64,000 bases of DNA from the NCBI GenBank assembly GCA_016789105.1, contig JAEURN010000011.1:62001-126000 (forward strand), in the 5' to 3' direction. Positions 53,597 through 63,754 of this stretch are shown here, in pieces. Both the position numbers and the translations under genes were made by a program. The notes below the pieces were generated by a model. The model was given only the letters and a program-made list of their open reading frames with translations. It did not search any database and was not told where the DNA came from. Source of the DNA: Armatimonadota bacterium. GTDB lineage: Bacteria > Armatimonadota > Fimbriimonadia > Fimbriimonadales > Fimbriimonadaceae. Position 1 is the first letter of the stretch. The number at the start of each line of letters is the position of its first letter.

Positions 53597-54856
53597 TCAG
53601 TTGGAGGTTTTTGGCGGGGAGACGTACCGGATCCCCAGGTCTTGGTTGATCTCCAACCCTTGTTCCTTGGTGTAAAAGCCTTCGCGGTCGACCGATTTAC
53701 AGGTTGCGATGGCCTTGCCGCCTTTGATTTCGACGTTGACCGTTTGGGGGAATCCGGCCATCTGAATTGTTTTCGACCCTGGTTTAAGGCCTTCTGTCAG
53801 CAGGACATTCAAGACGGCGCGGGCTTGAAGGATCCGGACGGTCATCCGACCGAATTGCTCGAATTTGTAGGGGATTGCATCGACAAGGTAGTCGGTTTCG
53901 ATTTTCCTTCCGGCTTTTTGCCGATCTAGGATGATCTTATCGATTTTTTTGCCAAGGACTTCGTGTTCCTCCGAAAAGTCGGATTGCTCCAAGATATCGA
54001 TAAAAACTTGGGCCAGCCGGCCTTGGATCGCCCTTTTGGTTTGCGTTTTGGAGAACTTGGGCATATCCCGCTCCATAGTCGCGACTTCGATGACCGACAT
54101 GTCTTCTTTGCTGACATCAGGGAGTTGGCGCCCAAGCTGCATGAGTTCTTGGGCATAGCGGACAACGACAGGCTTCAACGACATCACCGGAAGTTCGGGC
54201 GAGACAACGGCCAGGAGGCGATCTTTGAGGTCTGGGGTCAATTTAGGGTTTTCCACCAGATCTCCGGCAAGCCTGAGGAGGTCTGCATTGACGCCGTACC
54301 AGAAAACGATCGCGGCTTCGGACGGCTCGCGGACAACCGCCTGTTGGATGCTGGACATCATCTCAATGCTGGCGACGGCATCTTCCAGCCGGCCCTCTTG
54401 GATGGCTAGCAAGGCATAACTCCGGAGGGAACTCGTGACCCGCTTAGAGGCCATGGACTTCCGTTTGTTCAAGAAATCGTTGTAACTCGGGAGTTTTGGT
54501 TCGGCCACATCGGCGGCCTGTTTGGCCAGGAGTTCCTTCTGGGTTGGGTCGGCAAGCACTATGCCGGCGATTTCGGGTGTTTCGGCAATGCTGTCGCGGG
54601 CATGGATCCACGGCGTTTTTGCATATTGGGTGATGAACTCGTCTTTGTAGAATTCGTGGGGTTGCCCTTCCAAGCTGGCCCCGAGCTTGCCGAGTTTATC
54701 GATCCGTTGCTCAAGGGTCGAATCCGGCAAGCCGATGGCATCTTGGTAGTCCAGGTATTGCTTGAGGTATCGGCCCCCGAGCACAAGGCTGAGGACGCCC
54801 AAGACGATGAGCCCGCCGATCAAGACAGGCTTTCGCTTGCGTTCCGGTTGGCTCAC
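53597..54856 (-). CDS. Membrane-anchored protein, second of a paralogous pair
   Basis: A 419-residue protein with an N-terminal anchor (VLIGGLIVLGVLSLVLGG) and a long, mainly helical outside or cytosolic part. It aligns over its whole length with the upstream gene product: SKRVTSSLRSYALLAIQEGRLEDAV matches SKRTAGSLRVFINQSIADGRLEDAV, and FEQFGRMTVRILQARAVLNVLL matches FEQFGRMTARILEARAVMNVIL. The final portion has paired strands and LGIRYVSP. No known domain. The pair follows a GspE/PilB ATPase gene, implying a role with it (inference). Confidence 0.6.
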   Translation of the reverse strand: MSQPERKRKPVLIGGLIVLGVLSLVLGGRYLKQYLDYQDAIGLPDSTLEQRIDKLGKLGASLEGQPHEFYKDEFITQYAKTPWIHARDSIAETPEIAGIVLADPTQKELLAKQAADVAEPKLPSYNDFLNKRKSMASKRVTSSLRSYALLAIQEGRLEDAVASIEMMSSIQQAVVREPSEAAIVFWYGVNADLLRLAGDLVENPKLTPDLKDRLLAVVSPELPVMSLKPVVVRYAQELMQLGRQLPDVSKEDMSVIEVATMERDMPKFSKTQTKRAIQGRLAQVFIDILEQSDFSEEHEVLGKKIDKIILDRQKAGRKIETDYLVDAIPYKFEQFGRMTVRILQARAVLNVLLTEGLKPGSKTIQMAGFPQTVNVEIKGGKAIATCKSVDREGFYTKEQGLEINQDLGIRYVSPPKTSN

Positions 54857-54927: not shown

Positions 54928-56196
54928 CTAGTTGGCCCCACCTTGTGAAGCCTCATTGGCCGGAACGAAGTAGCGGACGCCGAGTTCCTGGCTGATTTCA
55001 AGGCCGTTCTGGTTTTTGTAATAGCCGTGCCGGTCGATGCCTTTGCACACGACTGTTGTCCGGCCCTTTTCGGTATCCACAACAACCTTTTGGGGGAAAC
55101 CTGCAACCGTGACCTCTTTAGTACCCAGCGAGAACGACCGGTCGAGGATCACATTCATGACGGCCCGGGCTTCGAGGATCCTTGCCGTCATCCGGCCAAA
55201 CTGTTCGAATCTCGCCGGGACGGCCGAGACCAAATAGTAAGAGTCGATCTTTTCGCCCTTTTTCTGGTGGGCTTCGATCATGTCATCGATCTTCACCCCC
55301 AAGGTCTCGGGTGGTTCCGTGAAGTCGATTTTTTCCAAGACGTCGATGAATGTTTGCGCCAGTTGCCCCCGGATGGCGGCCGCCATATCCTTTTGCTTGA
55401 GGTCGGGGAACTGCCGTTGGGTCATGAAGTCGAGGGTGTCCTTTTCTTCTTGTGTGGCGTCGGCGAGGTGCGCCGAAAACACCATCATTTCCTGGCTGTA
55501 CCGGACGAGGATCGATTTAAGCGGCATGACCGGCAGATCGGGGTCGACCAGTTTTTTCAGCCGGGCACGTTGGCTTTCGGTGAGCCCTGGCTTTTCAGAA
55601 AGGTCGGCCATGTTGCGCATCATGTCGGCATTGATTCCGAACCAATAGATGAAACTGGCTTCGCATGGTTCGGGAACCACGGCCTGCTGGAGTCCGGAAA
55701 GCATTTCCATGGCCCTGACGGCATCTTCCAAGCGGCCGTCGGCAATCGATTGGTTGATGAACACGCGCAGGGAGCCAGCAGTGCGCTTGGAAGCAACGGC
55801 ATTGCGCTTCATCAAAAAGTCGTCAGGGCCGGGGATCCCGGTTTTTGCCGGTGCGGCGGCCAATGCGGCCAACTTGCCCCATTCCGCTTGGTCTGCCAAG
55901 ACCGTTTTGGCGATTTCCGGCGTTTCGTCGCCCACGCGCGGTTCCTTCCATTTGGCGGTTTGGTAGTGGCCGATCAACTCGGCATTGTGGAAGTCTTGGG
56001 TTTCGCCAACGGTGGGCGCGCCCAGCTTTGCCAATTTGGCGATGCGTTGGTCAACAGTGGCGGCGGGCGTGCCGAAATGCTGTTGGTACTCCAGGTAACC
56101 CTGGACGCCTTTTGTGCCGAAGACGGCGCCGAGTGTGGCAAGTGCCAAGACCCCGGTGATGAGGATTGGGCTTTTTCGTTTTGGTTGGTCGGTCAT
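54928..56196 (-). CDS. Membrane-anchored protein, first of a paralogous pair
   Basis: A 422-residue protein with an N-terminal anchor (SPILITGVLALATLGAVFG) and helical body (EIAKTVLADQAEWGKLAAL), sharing with the downstream paralog the SxxKRT/V...RLEDAVxxxEM, PLKSxLVRY, and FEQFGRMT...RILxARAVxNV segments plus the final LGVRYFVP. It begins 25 bp after the GspE/PilB ATPase gene end. The pair may be pilus- or secretion-associated structural subunits, but no known family is matched. Confidence 0.6.
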   Translation of the reverse strand: MTDQPKRKSPILITGVLALATLGAVFGTKGVQGYLEYQQHFGTPAATVDQRIAKLAKLGAPTVGETQDFHNAELIGHYQTAKWKEPRVGDETPEIAKTVLADQAEWGKLAALAAAPAKTGIPGPDDFLMKRNAVASKRTAGSLRVFINQSIADGRLEDAVRAMEMLSGLQQAVVPEPCEASFIYWFGINADMMRNMADLSEKPGLTESQRARLKKLVDPDLPVMPLKSILVRYSQEMMVFSAHLADATQEEKDTLDFMTQRQFPDLKQKDMAAAIRGQLAQTFIDVLEKIDFTEPPETLGVKIDDMIEAHQKKGEKIDSYYLVSAVPARFEQFGRMTARILEARAVMNVILDRSFSLGTKEVTVAGFPQKVVVDTEKGRTTVVCKGIDRHGYYKNQNGLEISQELGVRYFVPANEASQGGAN

Positions 56197-57887: not shown

Positions 57888-58592
57888 TTACAAAACCCCA
57901 TCCGGAGGGGTGACCGTCATCTCCTCAACGACGCGATCCGGGTGCAGCGCGACAACCCAGGCGATGGCGTCGGCCACGGCGCGGGCGCGGAGCATCTTTT
58001 CCCGGGGAGGGCCCTGGCCGGTATCTCCCCCCCAAATCGGCGTGTCGGTTGCGCCGGGGAGAATATTGGTGACTCGGATCCCATGTCGCCGGTACTCCTC
58101 ACGGATGCAGGCGCCGAATTGGACAAGCCCGGCTTTGGAGGCGGAGTAAACGGCCGATCCTGGGAACACCGTGCGGGCGGCGATGCTGGCAACGTTGACG
58201 ATGAGCCCCCGGCCGGCCGCCAGCATGGAAGGGAGAACGGCTCGGGTCACCGCCATCGGGCCGAGGAGGTTGGTGGCCATCTGCTTTTCAATTCCCGTCC
58301 AATCCGATTCGGCGTAGCCTCCTCCTTCGGCGACCCCCGCGTTGTTAACCAAGACGATCTCACCTTCCCCTTTCAGCAGGTCGGCAAGCCGGGGGTTGAC
58401 GGCCACATCCAGGATGTCGCCGGCGATGGCGTCGGCCCGGAGCGCGCCCAACTCTTCGCATTTCAGGGCCAATTCCCTCAGCAAGTGATCCCGCCGAGCG
58501 GTCAAGATGAGTTCATAGCCGTGCTCGGCCAACAGGATTGCCGTTTCCGCCCCGATTCCACTGCTGGCCCCGGTGATAAGGACTTGTTTCAC
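57888..58592 (-). CDS. Short-chain dehydrogenase/reductase, coupled to the pterin synthase fusion
   Basis: A 234-residue classical SDR: TGASSGIGAE (cofactor loop), VNNAGVAEG, catalytic serine in NVASIAARTVFPGSAVYSASK with Tyr and Lys. Its start overlaps the pterin-synthase-like gene by four bases. That pairing suggests, but does not prove, a sepiapterin- or pteridine-reductase role. Last gene of the operon beginning at the BMP lipoprotein. Confidence 0.85.
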   Translation of the reverse strand: MKQVLITGASSGIGAETAILLAEHGYELILTARRDHLLRELALKCEELGALRADAIAGDILDVAVNPRLADLLKGEGEIVLVNNAGVAEGGGYAESDWTGIEKQMATNLLGPMAVTRAVLPSMLAAGRGLIVNVASIAARTVFPGSAVYSASKAGLVQFGACIREEYRRHGIRVTNILPGATDTPIWGGDTGQGPPREKMLRARAVADAIAWVVALHPDRVVEEMTVTPPDGVL

Positions 58593-59410
58593 CTTGCCAC
58601 CTCAAACACATTCCTTGCGGTTTCCAGGAGTCTCACCCGTTGCAGGGTTCCGGGGACTTTGCCGTCCAAGCGGTTAAAGATTTCCTGGGCGACGACCTCG
58701 CTGGTCGTGTTTTTGCCGGCGAATTCGGGGATGTCTTGGTCAAGATTCCGGTGGTCGTATCGGTCGACGACCTCTGTTCCGCAGACGGCATCCAACTCGC
58801 TCAGGTCGAGCATCATCCCGGTGGCCTCATCAGGGGTACCGCTGACGGTCACTTCCAACACATAGTTGTGGCCGTGGCCGTTGGGGTTGTTGCACTTGCC
58901 AAAAAGCCGGAGGTTTTCTTCGCGGCTCAGATCAGGGACATCTAGCCGGTGAGCAGCGGCGAATTCATAGGTGCGGGTGATTGTCAACATGTCGTTTGCT
59001 TTGTGCCACTCGCCATAGAGGAGGGGCGTTTCTTCAAGTTTCAGGGCGGTGGTTTCGACCCCACCCGGCAAGCCTTGCAGTCGGTCGCGGAAGTAGAGCA
59101 GTAGGTTTTCCAGGCTGGGAGCGCGGCTCGCGAATTCGGGGATCTCGTCGTTGATCGACTTTTGGTCAAAGGCGTCGACAACCCTTTCTTGAAGGACGTC
59201 ATCGATCCACTTGATGTTGACGACCATCCCGTTTTGGGGATCGACGGGCCCCCCGGCCGAAACCCACAGGACGTAGTTGTGCCCATGGTTGAACGGCGAA
59301 GCCCATGCCCCGAAAAGGGATCGATTCTCCGCTTCGGATTTGCCTTTGAGCCAATAGCGGTGCCCGCTGGAAAACGAGACTTTGCGGGTGAGTGTCACCA
59401 TTTCAGGCAT
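58589..59410 (-). CDS. Fused double 6-pyruvoyl-tetrahydropterin/6-carboxytetrahydropterin synthase-like protein
   Basis: 273 residues made of two PTPS/QueD domains in tandem. Domain 2 (141-273) looks active: zinc His154, His179, His181; Cys173 in GKCNNPNGHGHNY; Asp219-His220 in YDHRNLD; Glu263 in LLETARN. Domain 1 (1-138) keeps the zinc histidines (His17, 42, 44) but has Trp36 where Cys173 aligns and Gln83 where His220 aligns, so it is probably inactive. Domain 2 resembles animal PTPS closely. It may convert dihydroneopterin triphosphate in pterin or queuosine synthesis. Overlaps flanking genes by 4 and 8 bases. Confidence 0.85.
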   Translation of the reverse strand: MPEMVTLTRKVSFSSGHRYWLKGKSEAENRSLFGAWASPFNHGHNYVLWVSAGGPVDPQNGMVVNIKWIDDVLQERVVDAFDQKSINDEIPEFASRAPSLENLLLYFRDRLQGLPGGVETTALKLEETPLLYGEWHKANDMLTITRTYEFAAAHRLDVPDLSREENLRLFGKCNNPNGHGHNYVLEVTVSGTPDEATGMMLDLSELDAVCGTEVVDRYDHRNLDQDIPEFAGKNTTSEVVAQEIFNRLDGKVPGTLQRVRLLETARNVFEVAR

Positions 59411-60275
59411 CCCTCCGGAAGGGTATCCCGAGGCTTTGGGGTTGTTTGGTCCCTTTGCCGACCACGATCAGGACCGCCAACGCAGCCAGGTAAGGCAATG
59501 CCAAAAAGAACTGGATTGGAACGGGGGACTTGCCCTGCACCGAATATTGGAGCCATTCGAGGAATCCGACGAGCATGGACGCCGCCACCACCCAACCAGG
59601 CTTCCACCGGCCGAAAGTCACGAGCGCAATCGCGATGAATCCCCGCCCGGATGTCATGTTTTGGACAAAGCTTTGGGAGATCCCCAAGGTTAGGTAGGCA
59701 CCGGACAGCCCGGCGCAAGTGCCACAGAACGCTTGGCCAAGCAGGCGGAGTCGGATGGCCGAAAATCCCGCGCTTTCGACCGCTGGCGGGTATTCGCCAG
59801 CGGCCCGCATGGCCAACCCGGTTTGGGTTCGGAACAAGAGCCAGTAGGCAGCGGCTGCCATAACCGGCAAAACTAGAAGGACGGGATCGATGATCCCGGC
59901 CACTTTCGGAAAGCCGGGCACCTGGCTCAATTGGCGACCCTGCGCGGTGGCCAGATCGTAAAGGGTTCCGGTCAATCCCAACCCAAAAAGGTTGACGGCG
60001 GTGCCGGCGACGACCTGATCCGTGGCCAGAACAACCGTGAAATAAGCTTGGGCCATCGTCAATGCCAGGGCGGCAAGGACGGCGGCTAGCAATCCAACCC
60101 AGGGCGACCCAGAGGCGGCACTCGCTGATACCGCCACAAAACTGGCCGTCAGCATCGTCCCTTCCAGGCCGATGTTGAGGACTCCCGACCGCTGCCCCAC
60201 CGTTTCCCCGATCGCGGCAAAGCAAGTCGGGGCCGTGAACTGGATGACCCTCAAGATGATTAAGGCCGGATTCAT
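59403..60275 (-). CDS. BMP-type ABC transporter permease (second)
   Basis: About 290 residues from ATG 60275 (MNPALIILRVIQFTAPTCFAAIGETVGQRSG). It is a hydrophobic permease of the YufQ/NupQ-like group: ERSGVLNIGLEGTM-like GQRSGVLNIGLEGTM, FGLGLTGTLYDLA, RAAGEYPPAVESAG and GRGFIAIALVTFG. Nine or so helices. It forms half of the membrane channel with the permease encoded just upstream (ATGA overlap). Substrates of this family are nucleosides or, in spirochetes, riboflavin. Confidence 0.9.
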   Translation of the reverse strand: MNPALIILRVIQFTAPTCFAAIGETVGQRSGVLNIGLEGTMLTASFVAVSASAASGSPWVGLLAAVLAALALTMAQAYFTVVLATDQVVAGTAVNLFGLGLTGTLYDLATAQGRQLSQVPGFPKVAGIIDPVLLVLPVMAAAAYWLLFRTQTGLAMRAAGEYPPAVESAGFSAIRLRLLGQAFCGTCAGLSGAYLTLGISQSFVQNMTSGRGFIAIALVTFGRWKPGWVVAASMLVGFLEWLQYSVQGKSPVPIQFFLALPYLAALAVLIVVGKGTKQPQSLGIPFRRDA

Positions 60276-61297
60276 TCCACCTCTCCTGACCGGGTCTGAT
60301 GACGGGAGAACACGGCGTTCACGCCGATGAATGCGAGCACGGCGAGTCCTTGGATCGCAGGAACCAGCGAGTTCCCGATCGGCGTGAACCGTTTGAGCAC
60401 ATCGGATCCAGCAAAGAGCCCGCCGAAATAGAGGCTGCTGGCAAGGACTCCCCACGGGTTGAGCCCGCCAAGCAAAGCGACCGGGATCGCGATGAAACCC
60501 CAGTTCTGGCTGAACCCGTCGGCAAGACGGCCCGTGACGCCGACGTAGTCGATGGCGCCGGCTAGGCCGCACAGTCCCCCGCTAAGGGCCATCGCCCCGA
60601 TTTGGATCCGGCCGACATCGATGTGGTTGGCCCGGGCGGCCCGGGGGGCCCCGCCCACCACCCGCAAATCCAACCCGGCGCGAGTGTGCCATAGATAGAG
60701 CCAGACCCCCGTGGCTGCGGCGAGGGTCGCAAACACGCCGACGTGCAGGTCCGATTGCCGGTCGAACCGCATCAACATGGCGGCGTTTGGCAACGGGTCG
60801 GTGACAAAGACCTGCCTCTTCGCCTCTTGCAGCGGGCCTCGGATCACCCACTCCAGAGTGAAGAGGGCCAAGAAGTTCATGAGGATGGTGGAGATGACGA
60901 CCTGGACCCCTCTTTTGACATGGAGCCACCCCGCAAATGCCCCCACCCCTGCCCCGAGCAAAGTCCCGGAAGCCAAGAGGAGGGGTGACAATCCCCCGGG
61001 GCTGACCCCGGCCAAAATCTTGGCGCAGGCCGCACCTCCGATGCCGCCGAATACGTACTGGCCTTCCCCGCCGATGTTGTACATCCCAGCCCGCCATGCC
61101 ACGACGATCCCCAGTCCGCAAAGGGCCAGCGGGGTTGCTTTGACCAAGGTCCTGCCGATGGCGACCGGGCCGACGGCCGCCCCCTGCCACAAGTATCCGA
61201 GCCCCTGCCCCACATCGACGCCGAACACCGCCAAGGTGACCGCTATGGCAGCCGCCATGCCCAAGAAAACGGCGACCGACTGGATCAGGCCCTTCAC
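60272..61297 (-). CDS. BMP-type ABC transporter permease (first)
   Basis: A 341-residue permease of the YufP/NupP-like type: long N-terminal hydrophobic region, AGMYNIGGEGQYVFGGIGG, LHVKRGVQVVISTILMNFLAL, LRVVGGAPRAARANHID and GFIAIPVALLGGLNP. It pairs with the permease downstream. Both overlap neighbours by four bases, so the operon is compact. Confidence 0.9.
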   Translation of the reverse strand: MKGLIQSVAVFLGMAAAIAVTLAVFGVDVGQGLGYLWQGAAVGPVAIGRTLVKATPLALCGLGIVVAWRAGMYNIGGEGQYVFGGIGGAACAKILAGVSPGGLSPLLLASGTLLGAGVGAFAGWLHVKRGVQVVISTILMNFLALFTLEWVIRGPLQEAKRQVFVTDPLPNAAMLMRFDRQSDLHVGVFATLAAATGVWLYLWHTRAGLDLRVVGGAPRAARANHIDVGRIQIGAMALSGGLCGLAGAIDYVGVTGRLADGFSQNWGFIAIPVALLGGLNPWGVLASSLYFGGLFAGSDVLKRFTPIGNSLVPAIQGLAVLAFIGVNAVFSRHQTRSGEVE

Positions 61298-62715
61298 GTG
61301 GCTTCACCTAGGAACTGCTCACCCAGGATCCCGCGGCTCATGAATTGGCAGCTGTCGGCAACCTCGGCCAGCTCCTCCAGATCGGTCGAAAACAAGATGA
61401 CGGCGGCTCCCCGGGCGGCGGCTTCTTTGAGACGCGAATGGACATAGCTGGTTGCCTTGATGTCCAGCCCACGCGTCGGGTTGACGGCGACGACGAAATC
61501 GGGTTGCCGCCCCAAGGTTCGCGCCACGACCACTTTTTGTTGATTCCCTCCGCTTAAGCTGGAGACGGGATCGGCGGGAGAGCCTGCCTTGACCTGGAAT
61601 TCTGAAACAAGGCCCTCGGCATGGGCGCGGACGCGGCCTGGCAGGAGGAACGGCCCTGCGCAAACGCCTTGGGGCACTCCCCCAATGAGGAGGTTTTCTT
61701 CGATGCTGAGGGCCATTGCGAGCCCGTCGCTTTGCCGGTCTTGCGGGATGTAGGCAGTCCGTTGTGGCCTCAAAACAGTTCCCGATTCCGGTTTGCGGAC
61801 CCCGGCCAAACACTCGGCCAATTCAACCTGTCCGTTGCCATCGACCCCGCCGATACCCAGGATCTCTCCCCGACGCACGGAAAGGGTGGCCCCATCGACA
61901 ACCAAAGCCCCCCGGTCATCCCTAATTCGGACGGATTCGGCTCCGGCAGCCGCTTCTCCCCAAGGTTTTGAAGTTGTCGCTTCCCCCCGTGGCGGCAATC
62001 CACCGACCATCCATTCAGCAAGTTGGCCCGGGCTTGTCTCCGAGATTGGGCACGAGGCCACCACCACCCCTTTCCTCAGAACCGTGACCCGGTCGGCCAC
62101 CGACATGACTTCGCTGAGTTTATGGGCGATAAGGATGACCGAGCGCCCTTCGGCCTTGAGCCGGCGCAGGACGGCGAAAAGTTCTTCGGCTTCATCGGGG
62201 CTGAGCACGGCCGTCGGTTCATCCAAGATGAGGACATCGGACTGGCCGGAAAGGGCTTTGAGGATCTCCACCCTTTGCTGGGCCCCCACGGGGAGGTCTC
62301 CGGCGAATGCATCAAGGTCGATTTCCCAACCAAGTTCTTTGGCTTTTTGGCGGGCCGATTCCCCGGTTTGCCCGGAGGGCACCGGTCCGAGCCCCCCTGC
62401 CACTTGGGCCAGCACCAGATTTTCGAGAACCGTGAGTTGGGGCACAAGCATAAAGTGCTGGTGCACCATGCGGATGCCCAGTTCGCGGATTGCGAACGGT
62501 TTGCCGAATGGCAACGGGCGGCCATCCAAAGCGGCGACTCCGGAATCTGGGGTGACAAACCCGGCCAGCACCCCCATGAGGGTCGATTTGCCGGCCCCGT
62601 TCTCGCCGAGTACGGCATGCACCTCCCCGGGGCGGAACTCAGCCGAAACCTGGCTGAGGGCCCGCACCGGGCCATAGGTTTTGCAAATGCCCTGGACGGA
62701 AAGCATTCCGGCCAT
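61294..62715 (-). CDS. Duplicated ABC ATPase of a BMP-type importer
   Basis: 473 residues with two nucleotide-binding halves. The first has GENGAGKSTLMG (Walker A), VGAQQRVEILKALSGQSDVLILDEPT (signature/Walker B). The second has a degenerate Walker A (GVDGNGQVELAECLAG), LSGGNQQKVVVARTLGR and VAVNPTRGLD. This is the YufO/RbsA-like layout of nucleoside importers, in which only one site hydrolyses ATP well. The product is the energising subunit for the two permeases encoded downstream. Confidence 0.92.
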   Translation of the reverse strand: MAGMLSVQGICKTYGPVRALSQVSAEFRPGEVHAVLGENGAGKSTLMGVLAGFVTPDSGVAALDGRPLPFGKPFAIRELGIRMVHQHFMLVPQLTVLENLVLAQVAGGLGPVPSGQTGESARQKAKELGWEIDLDAFAGDLPVGAQQRVEILKALSGQSDVLILDEPTAVLSPDEAEELFAVLRRLKAEGRSVILIAHKLSEVMSVADRVTVLRKGVVVASCPISETSPGQLAEWMVGGLPPRGEATTSKPWGEAAAGAESVRIRDDRGALVVDGATLSVRRGEILGIGGVDGNGQVELAECLAGVRKPESGTVLRPQRTAYIPQDRQSDGLAMALSIEENLLIGGVPQGVCAGPFLLPGRVRAHAEGLVSEFQVKAGSPADPVSSLSGGNQQKVVVARTLGRQPDFVVAVNPTRGLDIKATSYVHSRLKEAAARGAAVILFSTDLEELAEVADSCQFMSRGILGEQFLGEAT

Positions 62716-62724
62716 TGCGGCCCG

Positions 62725-63741
62725 TTAGAACTCGTCCTTTGGTGCTTTGAACACACCTTCGACCATTTGCAGTTGTCGTTCGGTGATGGTTTCCTTGAGG
62801 CCGGCCGGGAGGATCGAGGCGTTGACGGGATTGAAGATGAAATCCACCCCACCCTGCTTCATGCCGACAAGTTCCACCGCACCTTTGTACGTCCCGTCTT
62901 TGACCCTTTGGGCCAAGTCGATGAACGGCTCATCGACTTTGACAATGGCGGAAGCGATGAACTGCTTGCTGAGTTTATTTTGGTCTTCGTTGGCGCCAAA
63001 GCACCAAACTTTGCGTTCTTCGCAGGCTTTGACGAATCCACTGACGCCGCTGTTGGTTTGGTGGATCAGGACGTCAGCACCTTCATCGATGGCTTGAAGC
63101 GTGGCCTGCTGGGCCGCCGCGACATCGTCGTTTTTGCCGGTGAACTTTTCGATGACAACGATTGCGGGGTTGGATTCTTTGGCTCCGGCGGCAAAGGCTT
63201 TGAACGTAGACCGGATGCTGGGGACATCGGGGCCGCCAATCATGCCGACCTTACCGGTTTTGCTCAACTTCCCGGCGATCATGCCGGCGAGGTAGAACCC
63301 TTCTTCCAAATAGAATCGGATTGCGCCGACGTTGTTGGCCGTGCCGGCCCCCCCGCTGGTGACAAAAACGGTGTCGGGGAAATCTTTTGCCACTTCCAAG
63401 GCGGGGGCATTGTATTCAAACCCGTGGCCGATGACCAGGTTGTAGCCGTTCTGCGCATAGTTGCGCATGGCATCTTTAATATTGGCGTCTTTGGTGACTT
63501 CTTGGTTGACTTCGGCCGAGTCTTTGTCTTTAACGGCCATGAGCCCATGGTAGGCGATGGCGCTCCACCCGCTGTCGTTGACGCTGGCGGGAGTGAGCAG
63601 GGCGACTTTGAGTTTGCCTTCCACCTTTTTCCCGGGGAGGCTATCCGGCTTGACGGAGACCTCGGTGGTATCGGGTGCGCCACCGGAGCATCCGGCCAAC
63701 AGCACACAGGCGGCAAAGAATGCGGCAAAGGGACGTGCCAT
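62725..63741 (-). CDS. BMP-family substrate-binding lipoprotein
   Basis: About 338 residues from ATG 63741 (MARPFAAFFAACVLLAGC), with a lipobox LAGC at residues 15-18. Landmarks are KVALLTPASVNDSGWSAIAYHG, NYAQNGYNLVIGHGFEY, GKVGMIGGPDVPS, DVLIHQTNSG and the C-terminal QGGVDFIFNP. It is the Bmp/Med family of nucleoside-type binding proteins, anchored at the membrane. The start is favoured over ATG 63750 because TACAAT lies seven bases upstream and the lipobox fits. First gene of the operon. Confidence 0.9.
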   Translation of the reverse strand: MARPFAAFFAACVLLAGCSGGAPDTTEVSVKPDSLPGKKVEGKLKVALLTPASVNDSGWSAIAYHGLMAVKDKDSAEVNQEVTKDANIKDAMRNYAQNGYNLVIGHGFEYNAPALEVAKDFPDTVFVTSGGAGTANNVGAIRFYLEEGFYLAGMIAGKLSKTGKVGMIGGPDVPSIRSTFKAFAAGAKESNPAIVVIEKFTGKNDDVAAAQQATLQAIDEGADVLIHQTNSGVSGFVKACEERKVWCFGANEDQNKLSKQFIASAIVKVDEPFIDLAQRVKDGTYKGAVELVGMKQGGVDFIFNPVNASILPAGLKETITERQLQMVEGVFKAPKDEF

Positions 63742-63754
63742 ACAAATCATTGTA
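63741..63754. promoter_or_regulatory. TACAAT box and inverted repeat at the BMP lipoprotein start
   Basis: The minus strand has TACAAT (plus 63749-63754), seven bases before ATG 63741. TACAA-ATCA-TTGTA (63741-63754) is also a perfect inverted repeat, overlapping the start codon. It may act as operator and leaderless -10 together. Confidence 0.4.

What the first reader, a model, noticed from the sequence alone, without database searches (positions are those of the whole stretch)
58589..59410. Tandem pterin-synthase fusion with a catalytically dead first half
Domain 2 retains Cys173, Asp219-His220 and Glu263. Domain 1 retains only the zinc histidines, with Trp and Gln replacing Cys and His. It is locked in an operon with an SDR (possible sepiapterin/pteridine reductase) and a BMP-type nucleoside importer. 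A regulatory or structural role for the dead half, or a pterin pathway fed by imported nucleoside, is possible.
Basis: partly seen in the sequence, partly recalled or inferred. Interest (0 to 1): 0.55.

Follow-up and report, generated by a model that had tools for sequence, protein, structure and literature searches.

The report
Two-domain pterin synthase, one half inactive
This gene encodes a known kind of two-domain enzyme that very probably makes a tetrahydrobiopterin-type cofactor; its first half has lost two catalytic residues but is still conserved, and it sits in a conserved gene group with an importer whose cargo is unknown.

Summary
Window 58589-59410 (minus strand) encodes 273 aa with two 6-pyruvoyl-tetrahydropterin synthase (PTPS) domains. 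Domain 2 has the full active-site set. Domain 1 keeps zinc His17/42/44, Asp82, Glu101 and Glu127 but has Trp36 for the catalytic Cys and Gln83 for the His. Dual-domain PTPS is already known in bacteria (Kong 2006, title only). Context fits a tetrahydrobiopterin-type pathway: the genome has FolE2, phenylalanine 4-monooxygenase, 4a-carbinolamine dehydratase and a separate QueD-like gene; FolE and/or SDR lies beside the gene in 20 of 24 loci outside Armatimonadota and Cyanobacteria (0 of 46 cyanobacterial). Domain 1 is not simply decaying: low dN/dS in close pairs, Glu101 position invariant in 79 of 79. Domain-2 Cys is kept in 79 of 79 and the His is never lost from both halves; in 9 of 79 the Cys survives only in domain 2 and the His only in domain 1, suggesting an active site shared by both halves there. 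A BMP-type importer, cargo unknown, lies upstream in 48 of 72 phylum loci.

The parts
58589..59410 (-). tandem PTPS gene, 273 aa
58997..59410 (-). domain 1 (aa 1-138): zinc His17/42/44, Asp82, Glu101, Glu127 kept; Trp36 (codon 59303-59305) for Cys and Gln83 (codon 59162-59164) for His
58592..58990 (-). domain 2 (aa 141-273): CxxxxxHGH motif, Cys173, His154/179/181, Asp219-His220, Glu238, Glu263
57888..58592 (-). SDR oxidoreductase, candidate sepiapterin-type reductase; frame overlaps the PTPS gene by 4 nt
59403..60275 (-). ABC permease A (BPD_transp_2); start taken at the internal ATG read from the translation (inference)
60272..61297 (-). ABC permease B (BPD_transp_2)
61294..62715 (-). ABC ATP-binding protein, two ABC_tran stretches
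62725..63750 (-). BMP/PnrA-type substrate-binding protein; best solved relative by sequence is an atrazine periplasmic binding protein (6pi5)

Best explanation
It is a dual-domain bacterial PTPS of the PTPS-II kind. Domain 2 very probably turns 7,8-dihydroneopterin triphosphate, made by FolE2 elsewhere in the genome, into 6-pyruvoyl-tetrahydropterin. The adjacent SDR then probably reduces it to a tetrahydrobiopterin-type cofactor for phenylalanine 4-monooxygenase, recycled by 4a-carbinolamine dehydratase. Domain 1 is a retained partner domain: it sits beside domain 2 as in tandem tunnelling-fold (T-fold) enzymes, still looks able to hold zinc and a pterin through its His/Glu set, but lacks the Cys and His of the proton relay, so it is probably inactive for the PTPS reaction. 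Its most likely job is structural or ligand-binding (completing the ring and neighbouring pockets, possibly sensing a pterin). Shown here: domain content, residues, conservation, genome context. Inferred: reaction, product, inactivity and role of domain 1.
For: Two PTPS domains, d2 most like rat/human PTPS (E 2.6e-31) with all its active-site residues. Model pLDDT 97.2, pTM 0.92; d2 on solved PTPS Z 19; the whole chain 4-273 on urate oxidase (two tandem T-folds; recalled) Z 12.5, 4.4 A over 223 residues. FolE2, phenylalanine 4-monooxygenase (NF008877) and 4a-hydroxytetrahydrobiopterin dehydratase models pass their cut-offs in the same genome. A separate CxxxHGH gene and QueC leave the tandem free of the queuosine role. 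Tandem and aromatic hydroxylase co-occur: 95 of 114 genomes scored tandem against 6 of 37 others. FolE, FolE2 and/or SDR beside the gene in Armatimonadota and in 20 of 24 loci outside Armatimonadota and Cyanobacteria. d1 under purifying selection: dN/dS 0.034-0.112 in the four closest pairs, d2 0.039-0.069; Glu101 position 79 of 79. Dual-domain PTPS in bacterial BH4 synthesis: title of Kong 2006 in two reference lists.
Against: No enzyme data for this protein. 19 of 114 genomes scored tandem show no aromatic hydroxylase, including 11 of the 13 outside the window's order, so the cofactor's user must differ there. None of the 46 cyanobacterial loci shows FolE or an SDR in the stretch fetched. 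PMC5041015 says that in Synechococcus PCC 7942 the PTPS paralogue nearer to rat was not the BH4 enzyme; I did not determine which of its two is the dual-domain one (recalled: PTPS-II). The SDR is not specific: sepiapterin reductase 2bd0 is only the ninth-ranked row and the best NCBIfam model is below its cut-off. A second phenylalanine 4-monooxygenase model, TIGR01267, is below its cut-off (205.4 against 264.75). NCBIfam's QueD model passes on the whole tandem (101.9 against 89.25, two stretches), while the stand-alone gene falls just short (84.1). In both pairs that include the window protein dS was saturated.
Confidence: 0.82

Rival explanations
1. Composite active sites: in part of the family the Cys comes from domain 2 and the Asp-His from domain 1 (intersubunit triad as in rat PTPS), while in the window's lineage domain 2 supplies all of it. 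Domain 1 is then the remnant of a former half-site.
For: The rat triad is intersubunit (title of Burgisser 1995 in the reference list of PMC7546909). Over 79 tandem proteins: d2 Cys 79 of 79; both His lost 0 of 79; d1 His lost 57, d2 His lost 11, always in different proteins; 9 have d1 Cys lost + d1 His kept + d2 Cys kept + d2 His lost (four Poribacteria records, Chloroflexus, G085, G099, G140, L174). In the full sets read (73 and 76, with a few shared genomes) both His are lost in 0 and d2 Cys is kept in all. Parsimony: at least 4 changes of d2 His, 3 of d1 His, 10 of d1 Cys, 0 of d2 Cys. In four acidobacterial loci the two halves are adjacent genes, and 3 of 4 second genes lack Asp or His or both while keeping Cys.
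Against: Rows are related, so the Fisher p of 8e-8 overstates it. 9 of the 11 proteins without d2 His have a His two residues on (rat 91; read) that might substitute. No oligomer was modelled. For the window protein itself d2 alone has the set, so this does not explain its domain 1.
Confidence: 0.35
2. Domain 1 is an active zinc enzyme or sensor with another reaction or ligand (side-chain cleavage or pterin sensing), using Trp36/Gln83 as new functional residues.
For: Zinc His 44 of 44, both Glu 44 of 44, Trp 39 of 44 and Gln 34 of 44 in the family; low dN/dS in close pairs. A review describes a pterin-binding protein, PruR, with Trp where related enzymes have the metal-ligating Cys (PMC13259868, passage), an analogy only.
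Against: The replacing residues vary across the phylum (W, Y, A, T, L, I, F, Q, D), more like relaxed catalysis than one new function; the PTPS-III ExxHGH motif is absent.
Confidence: 0.2
3. Domain 1 is decaying and has no role.
For: At least 10 changes at the d1 Cys on the 79-protein tree; G133 and L162 have lost the whole segment around it; lower mean identity than d2 in each of four groups (f1 0.59 against 0.64, other phylum members 0.38 against 0.56); higher dN/dS than d2 in the three wider pairs (0.16-0.21 against 0.07-0.11).
Against: Purifying selection in close pairs, Glu101 position invariant 79 of 79, zinc His 73-78 of 79; N and C domains form two separate clades, 79 and 79, so the pair has been kept over several phyla.
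Confidence: 0.05
4. It is the genome's queuosine enzyme (QueD).
For: TIGR03367 passes on the whole protein and just fails on the stand-alone gene.
Against: d2 has CxxxxxHGH, not CxxxHGH (motifs from PMC5041015); a separate CxxxHGH gene and QueC are present; FolE/SDR neighbours in relatives.
Confidence: 0.05

Closest known systems
Dual-domain bacterial PTPS (bPTPS-II; Kong et al. 2006 FEBS Lett 580:4900)
   Same: Two PTPS domains in one chain; PTPS-II motif CxxxxxHGH in domain 2. Cyanobacterial tandem proteins (e.g. L131, L146) are relatives found here and also have an altered d1 (His replaced by Phe/Tyr) with a whole d2.
   Different: In the window's lineage d1 has lost the Cys too (Trp) and the gene lies behind a BMP-type importer. 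The paper is not held; only its title was seen, its content and the name bPTPS-II are recalled.
Rat/human 6-pyruvoyl tetrahydropterin synthase (1b66, 1gtq, 3i2b)
   Same: Domain 2: E 2.6e-31 and Z 19, all active-site residues.
   Different: Single domain, hexamer of identical monomers (PMC7546909, passages).
QueD / PTPS-I (E. coli 4ntk, 3qn0)
   Same: Same fold.
   Different: CxxxHGH motif; a separate gene of that type is in the same genome.
Urate oxidase and GTP cyclohydrolase IB
   Same: Whole-chain fold match, Z 12.5 and about 11; the enzymes are tandem T-folds (recalled).
   Different: Sequence identity 4-10%; other chemistry.

Membership tests
Dual-domain PTPS-II (bPTPS-II) | two PTPS domains in one chain | tested here: met
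   two stretches of PF01242
Dual-domain PTPS-II (bPTPS-II) | CxxxxxHGH motif | tested here: met
   C173-NNPNG-H179-G-H181; motif definition from PMC5041015
Dual-domain PTPS-II (bPTPS-II) | zinc His, Cys, Asp-His and Glu in at least one domain | tested here: met
   domain 2
Dual-domain PTPS-II (bPTPS-II) | genome context of BH4 synthesis (GTP cyclohydrolase, SDR) | tested here: met
   FolE2 in the genome and SDR next door; relatives; absent near the gene in 46 of 46 cyanobacterial loci
Dual-domain PTPS-II (bPTPS-II) | PTPS activity / biopterin produced | not testable with these tools
   needs assay
QueD (PTPS-I) | CxxxHGH motif | tested here: not met
   d2 CxxxxxHGH, d1 no Cys
QueD (PTPS-I) | NCBIfam TIGR03367 cut-off | tested here: met
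   101.9 against 89.25, two stretches; judged not specific
PTPS-III (folate) | ExxHGH motif | tested here: not met
   Pro39 in d1 and Pro176 in d2 at that position (sequence); motif from PMC5041015
Sepiapterin reductase (the SDR) | closest to known sepiapterin reductases | tested here: inconclusive
   2bd0 ninth-ranked row, E 4.7e-22; best NCBIfam model below its cut-off
BMP/PnrA importer | PF02608 binding protein with BPD_transp_2 permeases and ABC ATPase | tested here: met
BMP/PnrA importer | nucleoside as cargo | not testable with these tools
   best solved relative is an atrazine binding protein; TmpC (recalled: PnrA) weaker

The most novel reading that the evidence does not exclude
The tandem PTPS family assembles its intersubunit triad in two alternative ways. 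In some lineages (Poribacteria, Chloroflexus, some Armatimonadota) Cys comes from domain 2 and Asp-His from domain 1. In others (the window's family, cyanobacteria, Bacillota) domain 2 pairs with domain 2, and domain 1 is freed from catalysis and kept as a zinc- and pterin-binding ring partner. The same fusion would then stack its rings in two registers, and the BMP importer of the operon would carry a pterin rather than a nucleoside.
Probability: 0.2. Interest if true: 0.62.

Novelty: new member of a known kind. Interest (0 to 1): 0.36.

Why it matters
It extends biopterin-type synthesis to a phylum for which the one paper search run (terms Armatimonadetes and tetrahydrobiopterin) listed nothing. 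It also gives a natural series of complementary losses that could show how a composite active site is shared between fused halves. [quoted passage not shown] The core finding itself is a known enzyme kind.

Tried and rejected
Rejected: QueD role (motif, separate gene); PTPS-III role (motif); pure decay of domain 1 (selection, invariant Glu); sequencing error (Trp at this place in 46 of 73 proteins read, the window's included); need for imported nucleoside (FolE2 present). FolE itself (PF01227) gave no match in the window's genome.

Led nowhere: paper search for His89/Cys42 detail (no hit); Kong 2006 not held; promoter scan (1 promoter-like site, 1.1 expected; 13 terminator-like sites, 7.9 expected, none followed up). 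I could not read atom distances from the model, so the ring register is untested. The geometry of rat PTPS beyond the passages of PMC7546909 is recalled from Nar 1994 and Ploom 1999, not seen. Searches for a bacterial pterin importer in print: two papers listed, neither bacterial by title and abstract start. A search for bimodular PTPS: one paper listed, not opened.

Limits of counts: the 73 proteins are those whose DNA I had fetched by then and could cut into two domains (window's included). The 79 are 41 of those 73 (the window's family cut to 12 of 44) plus 38 of the 76 fused loci (cyanobacteria cut to 12 of 46). Acidobacterial loci L118, L121, L125, L128 were left out as unfused and looked at apart. 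G133 and L162 have the Cys segment of d1 deleted and count as Cys lost; the gap at the first zinc His of G133 is an artefact of my cut. L113/L114 and L103/L104 are near duplicates, and L096, L097 and L171 share contig lengths with G008, G074 and G130. 'Tandem' in the 114-genome count is judged from the matches, with lists typed by hand into; some of these are fragments (e.g. G084), and G132 was counted as not tandem though fragmented. The tree is a quick one: 20 of 76 inner branches starred.

Full report
What is there. Window 59410-58589 (minus strand) encodes 273 aa. Both halves match Pfam PTPS. AlphaFold2 with 69 family members gives pLDDT 97.2 and pTM 0.92. Domain 2 fits solved PTPS (1gtq, human 3i2b) at Z 19, and the whole chain fits urate oxidases at Z 12.5 (4.4 A, 223 residues) and GTP cyclohydrolase IB at about 11. 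So the two halves probably lie side by side as in those tandem T-folds (inference; no oligomer was modelled).

Residues. Domain 2 has His154, His179, His181, Cys173, Asp219-His220, Glu238 and Glu263. Domain 1 has His17, His42, His44, Asp82, Glu101 and Glu127, with Trp36 and Gln83 in place of Cys and His. In the window's family d1 has Trp in 39 of 44 and Gln in 34 of 44; zinc His and both Glu are in 44 of 44. Over all 73 proteins read (the window's included) d2 Cys is 73 of 73, and d1 Cys is kept in 4 of 73.

Is domain 1 decaying? In the four closest pairs dN/dS of d1 is 0.034-0.112 and of d2 0.039-0.069. In three wider pairs d1 is 0.16-0.21 against 0.07-0.11. In three pairs dS was saturated, among them both pairs that include the window protein. 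Domain 1 evolves somewhat faster but is clearly constrained. In a FastTree tree N and C domains separate cleanly, 79 and 79, so the pair probably arose once before it spread across phyla (inference).

Who has it. Of 151 genomes (the window's and its relatives), 130 match the protein and 114 were judged tandem. The scan of GTDB records kept the best 80 of at least 567 confirmed stretches: by record title 46 cyanobacterial, 10 armatimonadotal and 24 others, among them Chloroflexota, Bacillota, Poribacteria and Acidobacteria. 76 of the 80 are fused; four acidobacterial loci carry the halves as two adjacent genes.

The refuting condition. Both domains carry Cys, Asp-His and the zinc His in G123 (L039, d2 cut by the contig end after Asp-His), Herpetosiphon (L109, L111), L129 and L175: 5 of 79. 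So the inactive first half is not the rule for the fusion and is probably derived. L175 is a long branch on the tree.

Pattern of losses. In the 79-protein set: 42 lost d1 Cys and His, d2 whole (the window's type; two of them by deletion of the Cys segment); 15 lost d1 His only; 6 lost d1 Cys only; 9 lost d1 Cys and d2 His; 2 lost d2 His only; 5 whole. No protein lost His in both halves, none lost d2 Cys; the same holds for the full sets of 73 and 76. Parsimony counts 10 changes of d1 Cys, 3 of d1 His, 4 of d2 His, 0 of d2 Cys. As the rat triad is intersubunit (title only), the nine split proteins suggest Cys from d2 working with Asp-His from d1. Against this: relatedness of rows, and a nearby His (rat 91) in 9 of the 11 proteins lacking d2 His.

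Pathway. The genome has GTP cyclohydrolase FolE2 (285.2 against cut-off 215), phenylalanine 4-monooxygenase (NF008877, 309.4 against 247; TIGR01267 fails, 205.4 against 264.75) and 4a-hydroxytetrahydrobiopterin dehydratase (86.4 against 80). No FolE was found. It also has a stand-alone CxxxHGH PTPS-type gene and QueC. In relatives FolE lies downstream of the tandem gene in 6 of 7 f5 and 8 of 14 'other' loci, FolE2 in 3 of 14. Outside Armatimonadota and Cyanobacteria FolE and/or SDR is near in 20 of 24 loci; in cyanobacteria in 0 of 46 (at most about 3 kb each side). Tandem and hydroxylase co-occur in 95 of 114 genomes, against 6 of 37 without the tandem, but 11 of 13 tandem genomes outside the order show no hydroxylase.

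Operon. Order: BMP binding protein, ATPase, permease B, permease A, PTPS, SDR, all minus strand. A permease lies upstream in 37 of 43 f1, 5 of 7 f5, 6 of 14 other and 0 of 8 f2 loci, 48 of 72 in all; the SDR downstream in 23 of 43 f1, 5 of 7 f5, 1 of 8 f2 and 0 of 14 other loci (one has it upstream). No match to the permeases was seen in the 24 other and 46 cyanobacterial loci. The binding protein's best solved relative is an atrazine periplasmic binding protein, E 1.6e-31. Its cargo is open: nucleoside, purine-like base or pterin.

Literature seen. PMC5041015: passages on PTPS subfamilies and motifs. PMC7546909: passages on the hexamer and active site. PMC13259868: passages. PMC3546692: passages. 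PMC5227711: passages. [quoted passage not shown] That the recombinant Synechococcus enzyme found active is the bimodular one is recalled; PMC5041015 says that PTPS-II of that organism had canonical PTPS activity in vitro, and that its other paralogue, nearer to rat, was not needed for BH4.

Verdict. A known kind of enzyme, a new member with a lineage-specific inactive first half; ordinary at its core, with two leads worth a test: the split triad in other lineages and the importer.

Noticed in passing
window 59403-63750, minus strand: BMP-type ABC importer in conserved synteny with tandem PTPS across several Armatimonadota families (48 of 72 loci); candidate importer of a pterin or a purine-like compound.
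   Followed up: partly
window 53597-54856 and 54928-56196, minus strand: Two adjacent paralogous proteins, 47% identical over 412 aa; the second has no Pfam match, the first was not scanned. A homologue lies behind the T2SSE gene in G003 and G004.
   Followed up: partly
L118, L121, L125, L128: Acidobacterial loci carry the two PTPS halves as separate adjacent genes before FolE; three of four second genes have lost Asp or His or both.
   Followed up: partly
G000:C8:354822-355568 (L088): The window's genome has FolE2 and no FolE match, while 6 of 7 f5 relatives carry FolE right beside the tandem gene: a probable cyclohydrolase swap.
   Followed up: partly
L105, L106, L119 (Chloroflexota): Here domain 2, not domain 1, has lost the catalytic His, the reverse of the window protein.
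   Followed up: partly
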